Shown here in pieces: positions 1 to 31,707 of a stretch of DNA of 32,047 bases. Source of the DNA: a virus. Location: the IMG/VR virus record IMGVR_UViG_3300047470_000373, positions 1 to 32,047 of that record; one strand, 5' to 3'. Numbering within the stretch: the first letter of the stretch is position 1; every line of letters starts with the position of its first letter. The notes under the pieces are model-generated. The model saw only the letters and a list, made by a program, of their open reading frames with translations, had not been told where the DNA came from and searched no databases. A program made the translations under genes and the position numbers.

Positions 1-927
1 GTGGGTCTGCGGAGCCCTTTCACCCTTCTCTCGCTCCGTCTTCGGCGGACGCGGATCCTTCCAGGGAAGGGTTACCCGGCGAGCTGGACGTCGGCCCATC
101 GCCTCGGCGATCCGCTTCAGGAGGTAGTCGGGCACGGGCACGTCCCTGGTCTTCTCCCCCTTCGGCAAGGCGAACGCGAGCTTCGCGCCCACCTTTTTCA
201 CCTGGCGGCGGATCAGAATCCTGCCGCCCTCAAAGTCGATGTCGTCCTCCGACAGGCCGAACACCTCTCCCGAGCGCAATCCGGCACCCACGCCCAGATC
301 CACGCAGAGCTGGAAGCGCTCGTCCATGGCCGCCTGCACGGCCAGGACGCGGCCCTTGGGCCACGCGCGGGCCTTGGCCGACGGGCGCGGCGGGACGCGC
401 AGCGTGGTCTGCCTTCGGCACGGATTGCGGGTGAGGCGTTCGTCGTCGATCGCGGCCTGGAAGATCGCCGACAGGTAGCGCCAGGCCTCGTTGCCGGTGC
501 CGGCTCCCGCCGTCTCCTTTAGGGTCGAGAGCCACTCGCCCAACTGCTGCGTCTTGATGGAGTTCAACTGGTACTCGCCGAGGTGAGGGACGATGTGCGT
601 CCAGACGCGGCCCTTGACCGTTACCTCGGTGGAGGGGTTGTCGTAGTGCCGGCGAGGCCACCACTCGTCCTCGATGTAGTCCTTCAGGAGGATCTGGCCG
701 CGGCGGGGGTCCGTGAACTCTCCCGCACTGGATTCGTGCTGGGCTTTCGCCAGCCACGCCTTGGAGCCCTCGGGCCCTTCGAGCTTGTCGAACGACCGGT
801 CCTTTACGCCGGGGATGCCGGCGACCCGGTAGCGCTTGCCCTGCCCCCATCGCTCGGTCCGGCGTTTCTTGCCGGTCTTCGGGTCCGGCTTCTTCGTCAT
901 CCATCTGTCTTCGATGTAGCCAGGCAT
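1..927 (-). CDS. int: Tyrosine-family site-specific integrase, 3' end cut by the window
   Basis: This gene reads leftward and leaves the window after 309 codons, so the C-terminal catalytic residues (H-x-x-R and the tyrosine) are not visible. The N-terminus (about 1-75) is a basic arm-binding region. Residues 76-180 form the SAM-like core-binding domain, with a motif near 82-90 (KDYIEDEWW) typical of actinobacterial integrases. The catalytic domain begins near 185 and carries the first catalytic arginine in GAGLRSGE (R218), followed by a lysine-containing beta turn (KGEKTRDVPVP, 256-266). The ATG at 927 is preceded by a GAGGGGGG ribosome site. It lies 22 bp downstream of the tandem-repeat gene, so the two are probably co-transcribed. 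Its role is recombination between phage and host attachment sites. The family call is secure; the target site is unknown. Confidence 0.9.
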   Translation of the reverse strand, partial: MPGYIEDRWMTKKPDPKTGKKRRTERWGQGKRYRVAGIPGVKDRSFDKLEGPEGSKAWLAKAQHESSAGEFTDPRRGQILLKDYIEDEWWPRRHYDNPSTEVTVKGRVWTHIVPHLGEYQLNSIKTQQLGEWLSTLKETAGAGTGNEAWRYLSAIFQAAIDDERLTRNPCRRQTTLRVPPRPSAKARAWPKGRVLAVQAAMDERFQLCVDLGVGAGLRSGEVFGLSEDDIDFEGGRILIRRQVKKVGAKLAFALPKGEKTRDVPVPDYLLKRIAEAMGRRPARRVTLPWKDPRPPKTEREKGERAPQTH

Positions 928-949: not shown

Positions 950-1399
950 TCAGACCATGGCGTTGTCCGGCGACTCCATGGTGACGATCTCGCCGTCCCA
1001 CAGCTGGAACCACTGGCCGCCGGCGAGGAACTGCTCTATGGCCGGATTGAGGGATCTGACGATGTCTTCGGCCTTCAGGTCGGGGCACACGTGCAGGCGC
1101 ACTACGCCCTTCAGTTCCCGGATCTGCACGCCCTGGGCCGGATCTACGGAGGTGTCGGCCTCGTACTGAACGGTGAGCGGGCTTTCGGGGGAGCCGGCGC
1201 TGATGATCTGCCCTCGCCAGATCTGGAACCAGCCGCACTTGCCGACGAAGGCTGTGAGTTCTTCGTTCAGCGGAGGGATGTACTGGTCTGCGGTGGCGCC
1301 ATGGCGGAGCTTGATGTTGACCCGGCCGCGGGTCTCCGTGACATCGACGAGCCTGTCCGGTTCGAGATCGGTGGTTGCTTCGTACACGACACGTAGCAT
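950..1399 (-). CDS. Unknown protein built of two tandem 73-residue repeats
   Basis: The 149-residue protein matches no family I recognise. Residues 6-72 align without gaps to residues 79-144 at a constant offset of 73. Shared positions include YEA (6/79), G25/G98, V27/V100, LN (44/117), F51/F124, WF (57/130), W61/W134, G63/G136, I65/I138 and SP (70/143). This points to an internal duplication giving two copies of one small fold with buried tryptophans. No signal peptide, membrane segment or HTH is evident. The ATG at 1399 has a GGGAGGG ribosome site. It sits between the repressor candidate and the integrase on the same strand, where a recombination directionality, immunity or exclusion factor would be plausible, but nothing in the sequence shows which. 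Confidence 0.85.
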   Translation of the reverse strand: MLRVVYEATTDLEPDRLVDVTETRGRVNIKLRHGATADQYIPPLNEELTAFVGKCGWFQIWRGQIISAGSPESPLTVQYEADTSVDPAQGVQIRELKGVVRLHVCPDLKAEDIVRSLNPAIEQFLAGGQWFQLWDGEIVTMESPDNAMV

Positions 1400-1458
1400 G
1401 CGCCCTCCCGTCGCAAGGTGCGCTCGGGCGACGCATGTCGGGAGCGCACGGTTGTGGA

Positions 1459-1497
1459 AGGGTACGCCCCGTAAGCAGACTGCGACAATCCGTTCAA
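1459..1497 (-). promoter_or_regulatory. Possible leftward promoter for the repeat gene and integrase
   Basis: On the minus strand, TTGTCG (1488-1483) and TACCCT (1464-1459) are separated by 18 bp, a fair -35/-10 pair. An overlapping TTGAAC (1497-1492) is an alternative -35. The pair lies about 60 bp upstream of the ATG at 1399. The call rests on hexamer resemblance and position only. Confidence 0.3.
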
Positions 1498-1520
1498 GTG
1501 AATGTCTATATGGGGACTTT

Positions 1521-1555: not shown

Positions 1556-1987
1556 CTAGTCGTTCTCGCGGCGCGCGCGCTCGTCCGCTTCGATCATCGC
1601 CCGCCAGCGGCGCAGCTCCGGCTCGGGCATGCCGGCCAGGTGGCTGACGATGATGCGCACCTCGTCGCCGTAGCCCGCAAGCTCGGTCGCCTCGTACTCC
1701 AGCCACTGGGCCGCGGCGGCAGCCTTGACGCGCCGCTCTGCGATGTTCAGGGCGACCGCGAGGGCCTTCAGCTGGTTCGGACTGGGGGCGCTGACGGGCG
1801 GGTTGCTGAGAAGGCGCTGCAGGTAGGGCTTGGACAGTCTGGTGCCGGACTCGGGGTGGATGGCCCGGTCGGACATCTTCTGGAACGAGAGGCCGCGGTC
1901 GTTGGCGTCCTGGATGAGCCGGGAGAGGGCGCCAATGGGGGATGGTTCGGCCGCACCGGGGTCCGGGGTGGTGGCCGGAGCCGTCAT
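1556..1987 (-). CDS. XRE-like HTH regulator, candidate lysogeny repressor
   Basis: This 143-residue protein has an HTH-like region at about residues 18-80, including the segment SKPYLQRLLSNP and a downstream NQLKALAVALNI helix typical of XRE domains. The C-terminal 60 residues are charged and helical, perhaps for dimerisation. The ATG at 1987 is chosen because GAGGA lies just upstream; a GTG at 2020 would add 11 residues but lacks a good ribosome site. It faces away from a Cro-like gene across a region of inverted repeats, the usual geometry of a phage immunity switch. No LexA-type peptidase domain is present, so SOS self-cleavage is not expected. The repressor role is inferred from position. 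Confidence 0.82.
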   Translation of the reverse strand: MTAPATTPDPGAAEPSPIGALSRLIQDANDRGLSFQKMSDRAIHPESGTRLSKPYLQRLLSNPPVSAPSPNQLKALAVALNIAERRVKAAAAAQWLEYEATELAGYGDEVRIIVSHLAGMPEPELRRWRAMIEADERARREND

Positions 1988-2084
1988 GTCCTCGTCTTCC
2001 TCTCGTGGCACTTCAAACACCGACTGTCTCTATGTGCGCGGGATGACCTTGAAAAAGTACCAGCTCAGTCCGTACAACCATCCG

Positions 2085-2191
2085 AGATCCGAGACGGTTC
2101 GTCTACACGTCGATGCTATCCAGCCACAAGATTTGCCGATACCTGAGGGTGGATCGTCTCGGATCTGTAGACGAAACGGCTCGACTATGAT
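2085..2191. promoter_or_regulatory. Divergent operator/promoter region of the immunity switch
   Basis: AGATCCGAGACG at 2085-2096 recurs inverted at 2155-2166 (12 of 12). TTCGTCTACA at 2098-2107 recurs inverted at 2166-2175 (10 of 10). Together they give four AGACG/CGTCT half-sites at 2092-2096, 2100-2104, 2155-2159 and 2169-2173; the first two form AGACG-GTT-CGTCT. A near-consensus -10 box TATGAT lies at 2186-2191, with half-sites just upstream in the expected -35/spacer zone. The likely role is operator binding by the leftward repressor and/or the rightward Cro-like protein. Confidence 0.6.
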
Positions 2192-2233
2192 TTGCTCTGT
2201 TAGGCAATCAGTTCCGCACCACTCGGGGGAATC

Positions 2234-2518
2234 GTGAGCCGACGCTGGACCCTGCGAAGCATCCCGTTCCTCAGGCACTGCATGTTGAATCCCGGCCGAT
2301 GTGAGTCATTCTCGGTCCGGACCCTGGCTGAAGCCTCGGGTGTCAGAGCAGGAGTGATCGAAAAACTTCTGACCGGTCGGCAGGTCACGGCCGACGTTCT
2401 TGACGCCACCGCCATAGCGGAGGCCCTCGGAGTCGCCATCAACCCCCTTTTCGCGCCTCCGTCGTCTCCGAAATCGAACCGTTCGTCTCGTCCCCCCGCC
2501 CCCACCAGTGAGGAATAG
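2234..2518 (+). CDS. Small Cro/C1-type HTH DNA-binding protein
   Basis: This is the first rightward gene after the divergent control region (94 residues). The HTH spans about residues 25-72: the segments SVRTLAEASGVRAGVIEKLL and DVLDATAIAEALGV fit the helix pattern of the lambda-repressor-like fold. The C-terminal tail is proline- and serine-rich, probably disordered. The GTG start at 2234 follows CGGGGGA. Its position opposite the repressor suggests a Cro-like antagonist; an activator of the early operon is also possible. Confidence 0.8.
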   Translation: MSRRWTLRSIPFLRHCMLNPGRCESFSVRTLAEASGVRAGVIEKLLTGRQVTADVLDATAIAEALGVAINPLFAPPSSPKSNRSSRPPAPTSEE

Positions 2519-2522
2519 ACCA

Positions 2523-2750
2523 ATGCCCAACAAGCCGAAGCCGCCGCCCAAGGGCTGGCTGTGGAGCGACGACGCCGCCGACTACATCGGCGTCCACGTC
2601 GTCACCCTCTACCGCTGGCGCCGCGACGAAATAGGCCCGAAAAGCAAGCGCCACGGACTCCGCCGCTACGCCTACAAGGTCACCGAACTGGACGCCTGGC
2701 TGAACGGCGACCACGAGGACGCCATCGAGGCCAGCCACTCCGCCGCCTGA
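2523..2750 (+). CDS. xis: Excisionase-like helix-turn-helix protein
   Basis: This 75-residue protein consists almost only of a winged-HTH of the MerR/excisionase (HTH_17) type. Residues 11-55 include WSDDAADYIGVHVVTLYRW followed by a basic stretch and a YKVTELDAWL helix. That is the pattern of small proteins that bind attachment sites and steer a tyrosine integrase toward excision. The ATG at 2523 is preceded by GAGGAA inside the end of the Cro-like gene. It is encoded opposite the integrase, as expected if excision is tied to early lytic transcription. The family is likely; the excisionase role is inferred. Confidence 0.75.
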   Translation: MPNKPKPPPKGWLWSDDAADYIGVHVVTLYRWRRDEIGPKSKRHGLRRYAYKVTELDAWLNGDHEDAIEASHSAA

Positions 2751-2760
2751 AACACCAAAC

Positions 2761-2815
2761 GGCCCCACCCGCCGGTGGTCAAGACCGGCAGCCGGGGCCA
2801 GCGGCCAAAGGCCGC
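2761..2815 (+). terminator. Two consecutive GC-rich hairpins after the excisionase-like gene
   Basis: GGCCCC (2761-2766) and GCCGGT (2771-2776) pair with ACCGGC (2784-2789) and GGGGCC (2794-2799), giving a nested stem. A second stem, GCGGCC-AAA-GGCCGC, occupies 2801-2815. No U-tract follows, so these could be attenuators or processing structures rather than full terminators. Confidence 0.4.
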
Positions 2816-2855
2816 GCGATCCACCCACACATCTCTGACAGAACTGGAGTGGACC

Positions 2856-3653
2856 TTGTCCACATCGTCACACGAGTCGCATCGTCATCGCGAACTCGAC
2901 CGCAAACGCGAACTCGTCCGCCGCGATCTTGAGCGCTACGTCTACGTCATCGAGTTCACCAGCGGAACCGTCAAGGTCGGCCAGACCCGTGACGCACAAA
3001 AGCGCATCGGACAGCACGCCAAAGCAGCCCAGGCGCACGGCCACTCGGCGGCCCGCACATGGGTGTCCATCCCTCACGTTGGGTACGCCGCGAACGAGTC
3101 GGCCCTCATCGCATTCTGTGAAGAGCGTTGGGCGATCGCTGTCGGACGCGAAGCCTTCGAGGCTGGCGACTTCGACTCTGTCGTCGAGTACGCCCAGGGC
3201 CTCCACTACGAGCGCCTCCCCGAGGGCCAACTGACGGCCTGGCTGACGGAACGCGAAGCCGCCGAGGCCCGAGCGCACGCCTCCTTTAACCACAAGGTCG
3301 CCATGGCCAAGTTGGAGGAGATTACGGGCAAGGTCCGCCTGATTGCTCCGCTCGTCAACGACGAGAACAGGTGGGCTGCTTCTGACGCCTTCTATGAGAT
3401 GGCCAAGGAGGCAATGGCTCTCAGCCCGGCACCTTGGGCCGACGAGGACCCGACGGCCGCTGAGCGTTACCTGCTTGGCCGGGGAACACGACCCGAACTG
3501 GCCCAGAAGAATGCGGCCGAGTTCGAGCTGAACTTCCGGACGCTGTACGCGATCGAGTACCAGCGCGAAGCCGCGTCTTTTGAAGACATCGCCCGCTTCT
3601 GCGACAACGCCACCGCAGGCCCCGCCCAGCAGAGGCTCGGGGAGGCGTCATGA
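2856..3653 (+). CDS. T5orf172 / GIY-YIG-superfamily domain protein
   Basis: The protein (265 residues from a TTG start) has a basic N-terminus and a T5orf172-type domain beginning near residue 28. The markers are YVYVIEF (28-34) and VKVGQTRDAQKRI (39-51), which correspond to the GIY and YIG strands of that nuclease fold. The domain ends near residue 120; the rest is helical, acidic and unassigned. The TTG at 2856 is preferred because GGAG lies 6 nt upstream; an in-frame GTG at 2775 would add 27 residues but overlaps the hairpins. It overlaps the next gene by ATGA. Nuclease activity is not certain, since the family is poorly studied. A second member lies at 31098-31634. Confidence 0.75.
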   Translation: MSTSSHESHRHRELDRKRELVRRDLERYVYVIEFTSGTVKVGQTRDAQKRIGQHAKAAQAHGHSAARTWVSIPHVGYAANESALIAFCEERWAIAVGREAFEAGDFDSVVEYAQGLHYERLPEGQLTAWLTEREAAEARAHASFNHKVAMAKLEEITGKVRLIAPLVNDENRWAASDAFYEMAKEAMALSPAPWADEDPTAAERYLLGRGTRPELAQKNAAEFELNFRTLYAIEYQREAASFEDIARFCDNATAGPAQQRLGEAS

Positions 3654-12806: not shown

Positions 12807-13657
12807 ACCGCCGCCCCGTCCCGCCGCACGGCACCGAAGCCCGCTACAAGGGCACCCGCTTCGGCCGGCCGCCGTGCCGCTGCAAGGCATGCACCCGCGC
12901 CAACCGGCTTGGCGGCATCCGCCGTGAACGCGCCCGCCTCGCCGGTGAAGACCTCCTCATCGGCCGCGACGTACTCCTCCCGCACATCAAGGAGTTGCAG
13001 GCCAGCGGCATGAGTCAAGCCCTCATCGCCCGGCACGCCAACATCTCCCAAACCACCGTCAGCTACATCATCAACGGCCGGATCCAGGCCTGCATGCGCG
13101 TCAAAGCGCTCGGCATCCTCGCCGTCCGCCCCGGACAGTTCGACGAACTCTCCGAACGGCCCGCACTCGGAGCCATGCGCCGCACCCAGGCCCTGTACGC
13201 CATCGGTCACGGCAGGGAAAGCATCTCCGCCGCCTGCGGGCTGTCCGTCTGCACCGTCGGCCAGATCGCCAACAGCCGGTACACGCTCATCGACGGCCGC
13301 ATCGACGCCGCCATCCGGCTCGCCTACCGCAACCTCGGGAACACTCCCGGACCGAGCTGGAAAGCCCGGCGGCGAGCCGAAGCCCAAGGCTGGGCCCCCG
13401 TCGGCGCCTGGGACGACGACACCATCGACAACCCGCAGGCGCAGCCCGATTTCGGCCGCGAACTCAACTTCCACGAACGCGGCCAGCTCCGCCGCGAAGA
13501 AATCATCCACTTCGCCTGGTTCGGCCACGAACCCGAGCAGATCCTCGCCCGCCTCGACAACGAAGTCTCCATCTCCACCGTCCGCCAGATCGTCCAGGAA
13601 TGGCGCAGCGGCGAGCGCCGCGACCGCCGGCCCAACTCCGAGAAAGCAGCCGCCTGA
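12803..13657 (+). CDS. Actinophage-type protein with three HTH units and a CxCxxC motif
   Basis: The N-terminus has the HGTEARY and PCRCKACTRANR pattern (about 9-34) that I recall from a large actinobacterial and actinophage HTH family. Three helix-turn-helix units follow: 59-93 (SGMSQALIARHANISQTTVS), 127-160 (GRESISAACGLSVCTVGQIA) and 231-270 (EPEQILARLDNEVSISTVRQ). The linker contains TPGPSWKARRRA and a WAPVGAWDDDTIDNP stretch, also typical of that family. It is probably a DNA-binding regulator or recombinase-like DNA binder without a catalytic domain. Length (284) is normal. Its stop overlaps the methyltransferase start. Confidence 0.75.
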   Translation: MNRRPVPPHGTEARYKGTRFGRPPCRCKACTRANRLGGIRRERARLAGEDLLIGRDVLLPHIKELQASGMSQALIARHANISQTTVSYIINGRIQACMRVKALGILAVRPGQFDELSERPALGAMRRTQALYAIGHGRESISAACGLSVCTVGQIANSRYTLIDGRIDAAIRLAYRNLGNTPGPSWKARRRAEAQGWAPVGAWDDDTIDNPQAQPDFGRELNFHERGQLRREEIIHFAWFGHEPEQILARLDNEVSISTVRQIVQEWRSGERRDRRPNSEKAAA

Positions 13658-15129
13658 TGACCATCACTCTGACCGACCTGTTCTGCGGGGCCGGTGGCTC
13701 ATCGACCGGCGCCATCCAGATCCCCGGAGTCGAAGTCATCATGGCCGCCAACCACTCCCGGCACGCCATCGACACCCACCAGGCCAACCACCCCGAAACC
13801 CGGCACGACTGCGCCGACATCAGCCAGGTAGTCCCCGGCCGCTACCCCGCCACGGACATCCTGTGGGCGTCCCCCGAGTGCACGAACCACTCCGTTGCGA
13901 AGGGCAAGAAGCGGGACCACGGCGAGTGGGACGACGGCCTGTTCGCCCCCGACGGCGTCAGCGAGGCAGAGATCCGCTCCCGCGCCACCATGTGGGACGT
14001 CCCGCGCTTCTGCGAAGAACACGCATACCGCATCGTCATCGTCGAGAACGTCGTCGACTCCCGCTGGTGGGGGCCCAAGTCGCGGCCCGGAGCGATCTAC
14101 GAGTCGTGGCTGCACACCATGCGGCACGGCCTCGGCTACTCCCACAAAGCCGTCTACCTCAACAGCATGTTCGCCGCCATGCTCGGCGACGGCGCCGCCC
14201 AGTCCCGTGACCGCAAGTACGACGTGTTCTGGCTGCCCGAGAAGGTCGAGCACGCGCCGGACTTCGACAAGTGGCTGCGGCCCACGGCGCTGTGCCCGAT
14301 GCACGGTCCGGTCCGGGCGATCCAGTCCTGGAAGACGACGAAGATGTGCTCGCCAACCCGGCCGTGGGGCCGGTACGGCAAGACCGGCCAGTACGTGTGG
14401 CGCTGTCCGCAAGTCGCCTGCCGTAACGCCATCGTCACCCCCGCCGTCCGCGGCGCCTCCCAGATCATCGACTGGGGGCTGCCCGCCCGCACCATCGGCG
14501 AACGCAAGGGCACCAAAGACGAGTTGGCGGCCAACACCCTGCGCCGCATCAACGCCGGATACGAGAAGTTCTCCCGCCCCTTCCTCGTGCCGAACGAGGG
14601 CCGCGAGAAGCCCCCGATGGACATCCTCGACCCGCTGCGCACCGTCACCACCCGCAACGAGACCGGTGTCGCGCTGCCGCCCTACGTGGTGGAGCTCCGC
14701 GGTGGCGGATCCTCCCACCGTGCCATCACAGAGCCGCTGTCCACAGTCACCGCGGGCGGCAACCACCACTTCCTGGTGAGCGCCCCCGACATGGTCCTGC
14801 CGTACTACAGCAGCAGCACCGCCCAGCCGGCCATGCAACCACTCGGCACCGTCACAACCGTCGAGGGCCACGCCGCGGTGTACGGAGGCCGGGTGCGATC
14901 GGTCGACGACTGCGGTTACCGGATGTTGGAGCCGCACGAGTACCAGGCCGCGATGCACTTCCCCAAGGGGTACATCCTCACCCCGGCCGACAAGCGCACC
15001 AAGGTCAAGATGCTCGGCAATGCCGTCACGCCGAACGCCGCCCGCGACCTAGTCGCGATGGCCGTCGAAGCACTCACCGGCGAAGACGTCGAGCGCCCCA
15101 CCGCGCCGCACCTCGCAGCCGCCGCATGA
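13657..15129 (+). CDS. dcm: C5-cytosine DNA methyltransferase (Dcm-like)
   Basis: The 490-residue enzyme transfers methyl groups from S-adenosylmethionine to C5 of cytosine. Motif I is DLFCGAGGS (7-15), motif IV is ASPECTNHS (71-79), motif VI is IVENVVDS (128-135, the ENV triad), motif VIII is QSRDRKY (182-188), and motif X is GNAVTPNAARDLV near the C-terminus. The catalytic cysteine is C75, but the usual PPCQ reads SPEC. The variable region holds a zinc-like set (CPMH ... YVWRCPQVAC) and three repeats of the form PL-x-TVT. The start at 13657 makes a TGATG overlap. No partner restriction gene is visible, so self-protection of the element is likely. Confidence 0.93.
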   Translation: MTITLTDLFCGAGGSSTGAIQIPGVEVIMAANHSRHAIDTHQANHPETRHDCADISQVVPGRYPATDILWASPECTNHSVAKGKKRDHGEWDDGLFAPDGVSEAEIRSRATMWDVPRFCEEHAYRIVIVENVVDSRWWGPKSRPGAIYESWLHTMRHGLGYSHKAVYLNSMFAAMLGDGAAQSRDRKYDVFWLPEKVEHAPDFDKWLRPTALCPMHGPVRAIQSWKTTKMCSPTRPWGRYGKTGQYVWRCPQVACRNAIVTPAVRGASQIIDWGLPARTIGERKGTKDELAANTLRRINAGYEKFSRPFLVPNEGREKPPMDILDPLRTVTTRNETGVALPPYVVELRGGGSSHRAITEPLSTVTAGGNHHFLVSAPDMVLPYYSSSTAQPAMQPLGTVTTVEGHAAVYGGRVRSVDDCGYRMLEPHEYQAAMHFPKGYILTPADKRTKVKMLGNAVTPNAARDLVAMAVEALTGEDVERPTAPHLAAAA

Positions 15130-27104: not shown

Positions 27105-27400
27105 CCGCCAACCCGGACCGTAAGCCCCTACGTGCCCGCCTCGCCGCTGCCGTCGCCTACCCGCTCACCCGGTACGCGCACCACCTCGGAGTACACGCCT
27201 ATCTGAGCACTGGCTGCCTTCACGGCGACCACGGCTACTGCCAGGGCATGACCGGGCTGGCCGGGAAGAAACGGCCCGGGGAGTGCAAGCACTGCGGGGC
27301 GAAATGCGTCTGCGAGTGCCACGCGCCGCCGGAGCGCAGGTTCAGCGACGGGGTACGGCAGCTCGGGGAACAACTCGACCGGCAGAAGGAGCAGCAGTGA
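27101..27400 (+). CDS. Cysteine-rich zinc protein upstream of Thg1 (99 aa)
   Basis: GCLHGDHGYCQ (about 38-48) and CKHCGAKCVCECH (about 62-74) give five cysteine and three histidine candidates for one or two zinc sites. This CxxCxxxCxCxCH cluster is, from memory, common in small Streptomyces phage proteins. It is coupled by GTGA on both sides and immediately precedes the tRNA guanylyltransferase, so a partnership in RNA binding is possible but unproven. Confidence 0.64.
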   Translation: MTANPDRKPLRARLAAAVAYPLTRYAHHLGVHAYLSTGCLHGDHGYCQGMTGLAGKKRPGECKHCGAKCVCECHAPPERRFSDGVRQLGEQLDRQKEQQ

Positions 27401-28221
27401 CCGACAAGACCGCGCTCGGCGACCGCATGAAACGCTACGAGGCCGCATACCGATCCACCCTGCCGCGCCGCACGTACACACTGCTCCGCGTCGACGGCCG
27501 CTCCTTCCACAGCTACCTGCGCGGCGCGGTCAAGCCGTTCGACGAGGCGTTCATGGCCGACATGGACGCGGTTGCCGAAGCCCTCTGCGCCGAGATCACT
27601 GGCAGTGTGTTCGCCTACACCCAGTCCGACGAGATCAGCCTGCTCGTCACCGACTTCGCGTCTGAGCAGACCGAGCCCTGGTTCGGCGGGGTCGTCGCCA
27701 AGCAGGTCAGCATCTCCGCCGCGCTCGCGACCGCCGTCCTCAACGAGCGGCGGCCCGACGGCCGTGCCCTCTTCGACTCCCGCGTGTTCACCCTCTCCGA
27801 CCCGGTAGAGGTGGCGAACTACTTCCTGTGGCGGCAGAGGGACGCCGTCCGCAACTCGATCGCGATGGCGGCCCAAGCCCGGTTCTCTCACCGCGAGTTG
27901 CACGGCGTGTCCACGGGTGGCATGCAGGAACTCCTATGGTCCGAGCACGGCATCAACTGGAACGACTACCCCGACGGCTGCAAACGCGGCCGGATCGCCG
28001 TCCGGCACGTTGGGGAGCGGGCCGTCGAGTACGTCGACAAGCGCAGCAACGAGACGGTGAACACCATCGCGGTCCGGTCGTGGTGGGAAACCAGCCCGGC
28101 CCCGCACTTCACCACCGAGCCGGGCTCATGGCTGGCCCGCACAATCCCATCCCTGCCGACCCTTCAGGCCGCGCCCGCGGTCACCTGGACCTACACCAGC
28201 GACCCGCAGCCCGCGCGATGA
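27397..28221 (+). CDS. thg1: tRNA-His guanylyltransferase (Thg1-like 3'-5' polymerase)
   Basis: The 274-residue protein has the Thg1 core: LLRVDGRSFHSYL (29-41) with metal ligand D33, YTQSDEISLL (74-83) with D78 and E79, the NYFLWRQRDAVRNS motif (141-154) and HGINWNDYPDGCKRG (184-198). Thg1 adds G-1 to the 5' end of tRNA-His; bacterial and viral Thg1-like proteins also repair 5'-truncated tRNAs by templated 3'-to-5' addition. All metal-binding residues are present, so the enzyme should be active. It is the last gene of the rightward run, directly before the terminator. No tRNA gene is visible in the window. Confidence 0.92.
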   Translation: MTDKTALGDRMKRYEAAYRSTLPRRTYTLLRVDGRSFHSYLRGAVKPFDEAFMADMDAVAEALCAEITGSVFAYTQSDEISLLVTDFASEQTEPWFGGVVAKQVSISAALATAVLNERRPDGRALFDSRVFTLSDPVEVANYFLWRQRDAVRNSIAMAAQARFSHRELHGVSTGGMQELLWSEHGINWNDYPDGCKRGRIAVRHVGERAVEYVDKRSNETVNTIAVRSWWETSPAPHFTTEPGSWLARTIPSLPTLQAAPAVTWTYTSDPQPAR

Positions 28222-30792: not shown

Positions 30793-31101
30793 TCAGCCCT
30801 CGGACAGGTATCCATGCTCTTCGAGCTCGGCGATCCAGCCACGAATCTCGTCGACGTCTTCGCTGGGGTGCAGCTCCGCCAGGCCCTCCGCGTCGATGTC
30901 CCACGAACCGCCGTGCGCCAGGATCTCTACGAGCAGGCCGCGTGCGCCCAGACTCAACCGATAATCCTGGATCCATTCGACCGGCACGGCCGTGTGCCCT
31001 TCCGGCACCTGGTCCGGACTGTCGACGATCGGCAGCCGGTTGACGGCGCGGATCGGCGCGTTCCAAGGGAAGTCGTCGTCTTCGTCCGCCGGCCCGCTCA
31101 C
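30793..31101 (-). CDS. Winged-helix protein, short form (102 aa)
   Basis: The GTG at 31101 overlaps the stop of the MUG113-like gene (GTGA), which fixes the start. An acidic N-terminus precedes the core YRLSLGARGLLVEILAHGGS, a tryptophan and then IRGWIAELEEHGYL. The order of L-ARxLL-EI, W, and ELE-x-x-GYL matches the protein at 30269, but this copy ends right after GYLSEG and lacks the basic wing. It may have lost DNA binding or act as a partner. Confidence 0.68.
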   Translation of the reverse strand: MSGPADEDDDFPWNAPIRAVNRLPIVDSPDQVPEGHTAVPVEWIQDYRLSLGARGLLVEILAHGGSWDIDAEGLAELHPSEDVDEIRGWIAELEEHGYLSEG

Positions 31102-31634
31102 TCGGGCACCCGGCTGCGTGAGACCTCGATCTCCCCGACGGCCGCCTTCACGACGTCGACCGGATCGCCGAGGGGCGTCAGATCGAACCACTCGCCACGT
31201 ACCCGGTAAGCGGCGAAGTGGACGTGCAGGTCATTCTCGTAATTCCCGGCCACGGACCACAGCAAGTGCAGGCTCATCGGCTGGCCCGTCTGAAGCTCCT
31301 TCAGTCGGCGCATCGGATCCTTCGCAATTCCGATCTTCACCAGATGCGTGCCATCCGCCGCCACTAGATAGGTGTGCGATGTGACGCTGGGCGCCATCCG
31401 CTTCGGCGGCTGAGGAGGTGCGGCGACGGGTCCGGCCTGCTCAGGCGCCGGCTGCGCGTCGTCCGGATACGGAATTCCTTCGCGTGCGTAAGCCCGCCGT
31501 CGGAATTCCTCGGTCATCGGCTTGCGGACCTTCGACCAGTCGGCCCGGGACCATAGCCATTGCTCCTTGAACCACCAGGCCGCTCGATCGAGCGTGTCTT
31601 TGAATTCGGGTACGACTTCCAGATGATTGGTCAA
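31098..31634 (-). CDS. MUG113/T5orf172-type (GIY-YIG-like) protein
   Basis: The C-terminal domain has HTYLVAADGTHLVKIGIAKD and a following PMRRLKELQTGQP, the two-strand signature of the T5orf172/MUG113 branch of the GIY-YIG superfamily, and ends with RGEWFDLTP. The N-terminal 85 residues are a helical, tryptophan-rich region (AAWWFKEQWLWSRADW) and a proline linker. The TTG at 31634 is chosen because AAGGA lies 6 nt upstream. The gene is coupled by GTGA to the short winged-helix gene, suggesting a joint function. Nuclease activity is unproven in this branch. Confidence 0.75.
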   Translation of the reverse strand: MTNHLEVVPEFKDTLDRAAWWFKEQWLWSRADWSKVRKPMTEEFRRRAYAREGIPYPDDAQPAPEQAGPVAAPPQPPKRMAPSVTSHTYLVAADGTHLVKIGIAKDPMRRLKELQTGQPMSLHLLWSVAGNYENDLHVHFAAYRVRGEWFDLTPLGDPVDVVKAAVGEIEVSRSRVPE

Positions 31635-31668
31635 TGCGAGTCCTTCGCGTGAGATGGGATGATCGTGC

Positions 31669-31707
31669 ACGCCGGGCCTGCTCACTTCGTCTGAGCAGGC
31701 CCGGCGT
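31669..31707. terminator. Perfect 15-bp stem-loop between leftward genes
   Basis: ACGCCGGGCCTGCTC (31669-31683) is exactly complementary to GAGCAGGCCCGGCGT (31693-31707) around a 9-nt loop. It separates the partial gene on the right from the MUG113-like gene. It has no U-tract; a terminator or attenuator in the leftward direction is likely. Confidence 0.55.

What the first reader, a model, noticed from the sequence alone, without database searches (positions are those of the whole stretch)
950..1399. Perfect-offset tandem duplication in an unknown protein next to the integrase
Two halves align gaplessly at an offset of 73 residues, sharing YEA, the W-F-x-x-W-x-G pattern and SP positions. The family is unrecognised, the duplication is old (many substitutions) and the gene is transcribed with the integrase.
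Basis: seen in the sequence. Interest (0 to 1): 0.55.

Follow-up and report, generated by a model that had tools for sequence, protein, structure and literature searches.

The report
Duplicated partner of a phage repressor
A small acidic protein with an ancient internal duplication accompanies one family of Streptomyces-type prophage repressors almost without exception, in the place where related elements keep a repressor-cleaving type of protease, so it probably helps set the switch between dormancy and excision.

Summary
Window 950-1399 (-) encodes 149 aa whose halves align without gaps at offset 73 (23 of 74 identical; score 117, best of 2000 shuffles 44). AlphaFold2 gives both halves the same element order, 73 residues apart (pLDDT 89). 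The duplication is old: of 62 distinct proteins 43 have two repeats and 19 one, and first and second repeats cluster apart in a modestly supported tree. Pfam, NCBIfam, PHROGs, PADLOC, Rfam and PDB searches gave nothing convincing.

The neighbour that matters is the repressor upstream more than the integrase. That repressor precedes the gene in 62 of 62; searching by repressor finds the gene in 63 of 65 loci. Searching by integrase finds it in 51 of 57; in five of the other six an M78/ImmA-type gene fills the slot (Pfam on four). In the loci examined the two exclude each other (0 of 22; 0 of 65). In double-repeat loci it tracks repressor divergence, not integrase divergence.

Best reading: a non-proteolytic modulator, probably antirepressor, of the prophage repressor; duplication would make a covalent dimer. 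Partnership is well supported by context; mechanism is inferred.

The parts
950..1399 (-). P1: two-repeat acidic protein, 149 aa (pI 4.62, net charge -9.3)
1181..1399 (-). repeat 1 (residues 1-73), predicted beta-beta-beta-alpha-beta-beta
956..1180 (-). repeat 2 (residues 74-148), same element order; 15 of the 17 distinct single-repeat proteins that tblastn matches to the window protein match best here (L044 and L059 match repeat 1; L107 and L108 give no match)
1418..1449 (-). dyad GTGCGCTC-N16-GAGCGCAC between the promoter-like sequence and the P1 start; arms covary among 31 aligned relatives on three of five measures
1459..1488 (-). promoter-like TTGTCG (1483-1488), 18 nt, TACCCT (1459-1464) upstream of P1
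   Evidence: read; a loose pattern, without shuffled control, is in 40 of 43 double and 15 of 19 single leaders
1500..1517 (-). conserved leader box GTCCCCATATAGACATTC; the window has ATAGAC where most double-repeat relatives have GTAGAC
1..927 (-). tyrosine integrase, cut by the window edge
   Evidence: Phage_int_M above Pfam cut-off, Phage_integrase just below; start
1556..2020 (-). repressor-like gene (Rep), near-invariant partner of P1
   Evidence: phrog_12831 transcriptional repressor E 6.6e-7; HTH_3 below cut-off
2021..2233 (.). divergent Rep/hth2 region with GTCTAC (2101-2106) and GTAGAC (2167-2172) operator-like half sites
   Evidence: positions read
2234..2518 (+). divergent small HTH gene, hth2 (Cro-like position)
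   Evidence: (HTH_26, HTH_31, HTH_3, all below Pfam cut-off)
2508..2750 (+). HTH_17 / excisionase-like gene
   Evidence: HTH_17 E 3.4e-9; phrog_66 E 7.1e-9

Best explanation
P1 is the dedicated protein partner of the prophage repressor Rep, and most likely an antirepressor-type modulator that works by binding rather than by proteolysis. Shown by sequence: rep, P1 and int lie in this order and direction; P1 goes with one repressor family almost without exception; it takes the slot that M78/ImmA-type genes take beside the same integrase family; it is acidic; it lies behind its own promoter-like sequence. Inferred: Rep represses the P1-int promoter through GTAGAC-type sites; when Rep falls or is challenged, P1 is made with Int, binds Rep and helps inactivate it, so that derepression and integrase expression reinforce each other. 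In the single-repeat forms two chains would pair; the duplication fused them into a covalent dimer. My odds: partner or modulator of Rep about 0.6; antirepressor sign about 0.4.
For: Rep upstream on the same strand in 62 of 62 distinct relatives. P1 in 63 of 65 loci found by searching with Rep; one of the two misses ends at the contig end. Of these 65 contigs 18 had not come up in the P1 searches, and 16 of the 18 have P1. 51 of 57 loci found by integrase have both P1 and Rep, 6 have neither; in 5 of those 6 the gene before int reads AH(E/H)xEH, and Pfam gives Peptidase_M78 for the 4 proteins scanned, E 7e-8 to 4e-5. P1 in 0 of 22 M78 loci, M78 in 0 of 65 Rep loci; 15 of the 22 carry a match to this integrase profile. 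Partial correlations of distances in 35 double loci: P1-Rep 0.42, P1-Int 0.09, P1-hth2 0.09. pI of 43 doubles: median 4.87, range 4.41-5.76. dN/dS 0.08-0.37 in 14 pairs that I chose. GTAGAC/GTCTAC: 99 occurrences in 60 rep/hth2 regions (shuffle mean 6.15, max 13), and in 37 of 43 double leaders (shuffle mean 2.7, max 8); the hexamer was picked after looking at the sequences.
Against: No binding, expression or mutant data. Same slot does not prove same function: co-repressor, Int accessory or superinfection gene would also fit the order. In singles GTAGAC is not enriched in the leader (4 of 19; shuffle mean 1.2, max 5) and the partial correlations are P1-hth2 0.42, P1-Rep 0.20 (15 loci), so Rep is not singled out there. 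Singles are less acidic (median pI 5.91). P1 shows no profile similarity to the M78 proteins of the slot (hhalign probability 0.45%), and two of the five M78-type genes (L256 and its identical copy L257) lack a full HExxH. L213 has another small ORF and L245 nothing recognised in the slot.
Confidence: 0.45

Rival explanations
1. P1 is a co-repressor or stabiliser: it binds Rep and helps it hold the lysogenic state.
For: Same partnership evidence as above; an acidic binding protein need not be an inhibitor.
Against: In related elements the slot holds M78-type genes, the family of the antirepressor ImmA (PMC6540685, passages; that ImmA is an M78 peptidase is recalled); P1's promoter-like region carries the repressor-type half site in the double clade, which suggests that Rep turns it off.
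Confidence: 0.2
2. P1 is an integrase accessory protein (assembly or directionality factor) translated with Int.
For: 22-nt gap to int here; 17 of 17 singles with an int start found overlap it by 32-77 nt, 39 of 41 doubles with a start found end 9-24 nt before it, and L072 and L075 overlap by 47. Int lies closer to P1 than Rep does.
Against: P1 does not track Int (partial 0.09 in doubles, -0.03 in singles); the nearest relative by Int has the other repeat architecture in 8 of 51 loci, by Rep in 1, by hth2 in 2, by P1 in none; integrase-like ORFs of another type follow P1 in L107, L108 and L144, and a convergent one lies beside the distant candidates L132 and L145; 6 of 57 integrase loci lack P1.
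Confidence: 0.2
3. P1 is a lysogenically expressed superinfection-exclusion or defence gene of the immunity region.
For: Position between repressor and integrase is a known place for such genes in other temperate phages (recalled, no call).
Against: Near-invariant linkage to one repressor family (63 of 65) is unlike the turnover of cargo genes; PADLOC matches are weak and inconsistent (BrxA in 2 of 37 members, best E 0.0017; DpdE in 1, E 0.032).
Confidence: 0.1

Closest known systems
ImmR-ImmA repressor/antirepressor pair (Peptidase_M78, ICEBs1 type)
   Same: Small gene directly after the repressor and before the integrase, in elements that share this integrase family; expected to act on the repressor.
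   Different: No HExxH in any of 62 P1 proteins, no Pfam M78 match in 37 members, no profile match to the M78 proteins of the slot, and a leader of about 160 nt with promoter-like sequence.
Small phage proteins with tandem-duplicated domains and single-domain relatives (general kind, recalled)
   Same: Two homologous halves; single-domain relatives that could pair.
   Different: No named family or relative of known structure was found here; single and double forms hold the same slot in the same kind of element, and doubling may have happened more than once (window type; L072/L075 with a linker; perhaps L143).

Membership tests
Peptidase_M78 / ImmA antirepressor | HExxH zinc-binding motif | tested here: not met
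   absent from 62 of 62 distinct P1 proteins
Peptidase_M78 / ImmA antirepressor | sequence similarity to M78 | tested here: not met
   Pfam scan of 37 of the 62 members lists no M78; hhalign against four M78 proteins of the slot, probability 0.45% (only four rows, low power)
Peptidase_M78 / ImmA antirepressor | zincin-type fold | tested here: inconclusive
   single-domain model: PprI 8sln_A Z 3.4 (rmsd 7.2, 58 aligned), 6mdx_A Z 3.3, M61 7xyo_A Z 3.3; weak and tied with unrelated rows such as a GH20 enzyme at 3.2; no Foldseek match at E <= 0.001
Peptidase_M78 / ImmA antirepressor | acts on a cognate repressor encoded beside it | not testable with these tools
   gene order consistent, no assay
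Anti-phage defence proteins (PADLOC) | match to a PADLOC model | tested here: not met
   0 families for P0001; 2 of 37 members match BrxA at best E 0.0017, 1 matches DpdE at 0.032
Phage excisionase / directionality factor | acts on the neighbouring integrase | tested here: inconclusive
   activity not testable; P1 does not track Int and a separate excisionase-like HTH_17 gene lies at 2508-2750

The most novel reading that the evidence does not exclude
P1 founds a new class of non-proteolytic antirepressors: an acidic beta-beta-beta-alpha-beta-beta domain that binds its cognate repressor dimer, standing where ImmA-type proteases stand in related switches, with tandem duplication turning a homodimer into one chain.
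Probability: 0.3. Interest if true: 0.65.

Novelty: new variant of a known kind. Interest (0 to 1): 0.5.

Why it matters
It turns an anonymous gene into a testable part of the lysogeny switch of a group of Streptomyces prophages (13 of 392 sampled genomes of the genus, the chosen centre included). If right, there are two interchangeable ways of controlling a repressor beside one integrase family, by protease or by a binding protein, and the natural single- and double-repeat series shows what domain duplication does in such a regulator.

Tried and rejected
Homology to a known family: Pfam, NCBIfam, PADLOC and PHROGs for 37 members, Rfam on 900-2300, PDB sequences, phage and plasmid records by tblastn. 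Best stray matches: MraZ model in 6 of 37 members, E 0.02; FeS_assembly_P in 1, E 0.0034; BrxA in 2, E 0.0017. None convincing. Foldseek gave no E <= 0.001 for either model. The best fold hit of the double model, 6cz6_C at Z 4.1, is not among the rows for the single domain; a family not listed there is not excluded. A degenerate M78 peptidase: suggested by weak zincin hits and by the shared slot, not supported by hhalign (0.45%; controls against Rep and Int profiles 0.09% and 0.24%).

Attachment site in a tRNA gene: ARAGORN finds no tRNA in the 12 Streptomyces loci L045-L056; att sites were not worked out. RNA hairpin versus DNA operator for the dyad: on 31 of 62 leaders, which I chose because they align (30 doubles and L066), paired cells are 95.2% (shuffles 85.9), cells changed on both sides 24 (8.4) and covariation score 0.334 (0.155), each reached by 0 of 500 shuffles; but pairs with a change on both sides (3 against 2.9; 414 of 500) and further pair types (12 against 10.5; 93 of 500) do not exceed shuffles. 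The near-constant 16-17 nt spacing favours a protein-binding dyad; both readings remain open. In per-leader scans many best stems were no better than shuffles, and of the singles only L066 shows the GTGC dyad. The dyad occurs once in the window. A first genome-contig scan with two sequences gave 27 pattern hits and no confirmed relative.

Literature: listings and passages of PMC11302927 (Samy prophage, serine integrase) and PMC6540685 show nothing on this family; the peptides GGQWFQLW and AGGQWFQ are in no held paper. This speaks only for that library and those searches.

Full report
The observation. The ORF at 950-1399 on the minus strand encodes 149 residues. Its best ungapped self-match is at offset 73: 23 of 74 residues identical, score 117, against a maximum of 44 in 2000 shuffles. 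AlphaFold2 on a 37-row alignment gives mean pLDDT 89.4 and the same order of elements in both halves, 73 residues apart; a single-repeat relative modelled alone has the same order, with lower confidence (pLDDT 77.9).

The family. The window is a 32,047-base virus record whose host is not established; all 12 relatives found in genome contigs are in records titled Streptomyces. One relative was found with the protein alone, 42 viral loci with a two-row profile and 53 with a single-repeat profile. These come to 66 records (53 viral contigs, 12 genome contigs and the window, counted; many loci repeat one contig) with 62 distinct proteins, 43 with two repeats and 19 with one. A tree of all repeats puts 41 second repeats on one side of a branch (SH-aLRT 82) and 41 first repeats together with one single-repeat protein, L066 (SH-aLRT 93); few columns make support modest. 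So the window's type of duplication is older than the diversification of these 41 proteins; L066 may be a later reduction to one repeat. L072 and L075 are 192 residues with a linker and their repeats fall outside both clusters. L143 has repeats 42% alike, about as much as each is like any other (47% and 41%). Doubling may therefore have happened more than once; this rests on a weakly resolved tree. In sampled genomes the domain is in 13 of 392 of the genus, 13 of 391 of the order and 1 of 396 of the phylum, the last being the centre itself; the centre counts in all three, and for most genomes only 14 first-look candidates were scored, so these are lower bounds.

The neighbourhood. A gene matching the window's Rep lies upstream on the same strand in 62 of 62, a gene matching its integrase downstream in 58 of 62 (L010, L013 and L044 end with the contig; L107 has an integrase-like ORF too distant for the query), and a small HTH gene diverges in 60 of 62. 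Because these loci were found through P1, I also searched from the other genes. Searching with a Rep profile gave 65 loci, 63 with P1 next downstream; L166 ends there and L213 has another small ORF. Of the 65 contigs 18 were new to the P1 searches and 16 of these have P1. Searching with an integrase profile gave 57 loci, 51 with P1 and Rep, 6 with neither. In L226, L250, L253, L256 and L257 the gene before int reads AH(E/H)xEH; L226, L250 and L253 have a full HExxH, L256 and its identical copy L257 do not; Pfam gives Peptidase_M78 above cut-off for the four scanned. In the four whose upstream ORFs I printed an HTH-like gene unlike this Rep precedes it (my reading). L245 has an HTH-like ORF but nothing recognised in the slot. 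Searching with the M78 proteins gave 22 loci, five of them the contigs just named: P1 in none; an integrase of this profile in 15 (12 strong and co-directional, L289 and L292 weak, L291 weak and on the other strand); of the 7 without, five end within about 30 bases of the gene. The reverse, M78 in the 65 Rep loci, is 0. One Rep-profile hit in L274 is a partial ORF more than 2 kb away, not in the slot. M78 was sought with a four-row profile and P1 with a 44-row one, so very distant forms could be missed.

Two distant candidates, L132 and L145 (E 3e-7 and 3e-6), have what I read as a repressor-like gene upstream and an integrase-like gene convergent; the window's Rep does not match there by tblastn, so I use them only as a hint.

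Co-evolution. Pairwise distances in 35 double loci: P1-Rep r 0.56, P1-Int 0.35, P1-hth2 0.39; partial 0.42, 0.09, 0.09. In 15 single loci the partial values are 0.20, -0.03, 0.42. P1 therefore goes with the immunity genes rather than with Int; Rep is favoured over hth2 only in doubles. Linkage alone can make neighbours track each other, but Int lies closer to P1 than Rep does. Stop signs were dropped from some Int and hth2 segments in this script.

Control region. Between rep and P1 lie about 160 nt, strongly conserved in doubles: a GTAGAC box, TTGTCG, 18 nt, TACCCT, then a dyad GTGCGC...GCGCAC before the ribosome-binding site. GTAGAC/GTCTAC half sites abound in the rep/hth2 region (99 in 60 loci, 47 of 60 with at least one; shuffle mean 6.15, max 13) and occur in 37 of 43 double leaders but only 4 of 19 single leaders, where shuffles reach 5. 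The window's own leader has ATAGAC. The dyad arms covary on three of five measures and not on the other two. Of singles with an int start found, 17 of 17 overlap it by 32-77 nt; of doubles, 39 of 41 stop 9-24 nt before it and L072 and L075 overlap by 47. The tail of the singles (RIHRGPLV and like) lies over the int start read in another frame, so its conservation should not be taken as function of P1.

Mechanism. Shown: gene order, partnership, mutual exclusion with M78 in the loci examined, acidity (median pI 4.87 in 43 doubles; 5.91 in 19 singles) and dN/dS of 0.08-0.37 in 14 chosen pairs. Established elsewhere: ImmA is a metalloprotease antirepressor that cleaves ImmR in ICEBs1 (PMC6540685, passages). 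Inferred: P1 modulates Rep by binding, likely as antirepressor, made with Int when repression lifts. P1 lacks the protease motif (62 of 62) and shows no profile similarity to the M78 proteins, so it may work like ImmA at most by analogy and is not filed as a member.

Verdict. The duplication is real but in itself ordinary. What is worth following is an unnamed protein family tied almost without exception to one repressor family, in the slot of a known antirepressor type.

Noticed in passing
L107, L108, L144, L209, L210 (integrase-like ORFs, e.g. L209 3655-5223): Integrase-like proteins downstream of P1 that carry a LacI-type HTH-like segment (in L107 GVTLKEVAARAGVSTGTVSNVLNRPE) inside the protein; the HTH label is recalled, not from a profile search.
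   Followed up: no
window 27283-28221 (+): phrog_4717, tRNA-His guanylyltransferase, E 8.1e-73; an unexpected gene for a phage, in my judgement.
   Followed up: no
window 13600-15129 (+): C-5 cytosine DNA methylase, Pfam E 3.9e-18.
   Followed up: no
window 2775-3653 (+) and 31098-31685 (-): GIY-YIG-like (below Pfam cut-off) and MUG113/T5orf172 (above cut-off) genes.
   Followed up: no
L213 3433-3786 (+): A different small ORF in the P1 slot after a distant Rep relative, with a convergent integrase-like gene.
   Followed up: partly
single-repeat genes, e.g. L061 6001-6282: Their C-terminal tail lies over the integrase start in another frame.
   Followed up: partly
G374 contig C111, loci L128 and L133: Two copies of the double-repeat gene about 90 kb apart on one contig with equal scores, perhaps two related prophages.
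   Followed up: no
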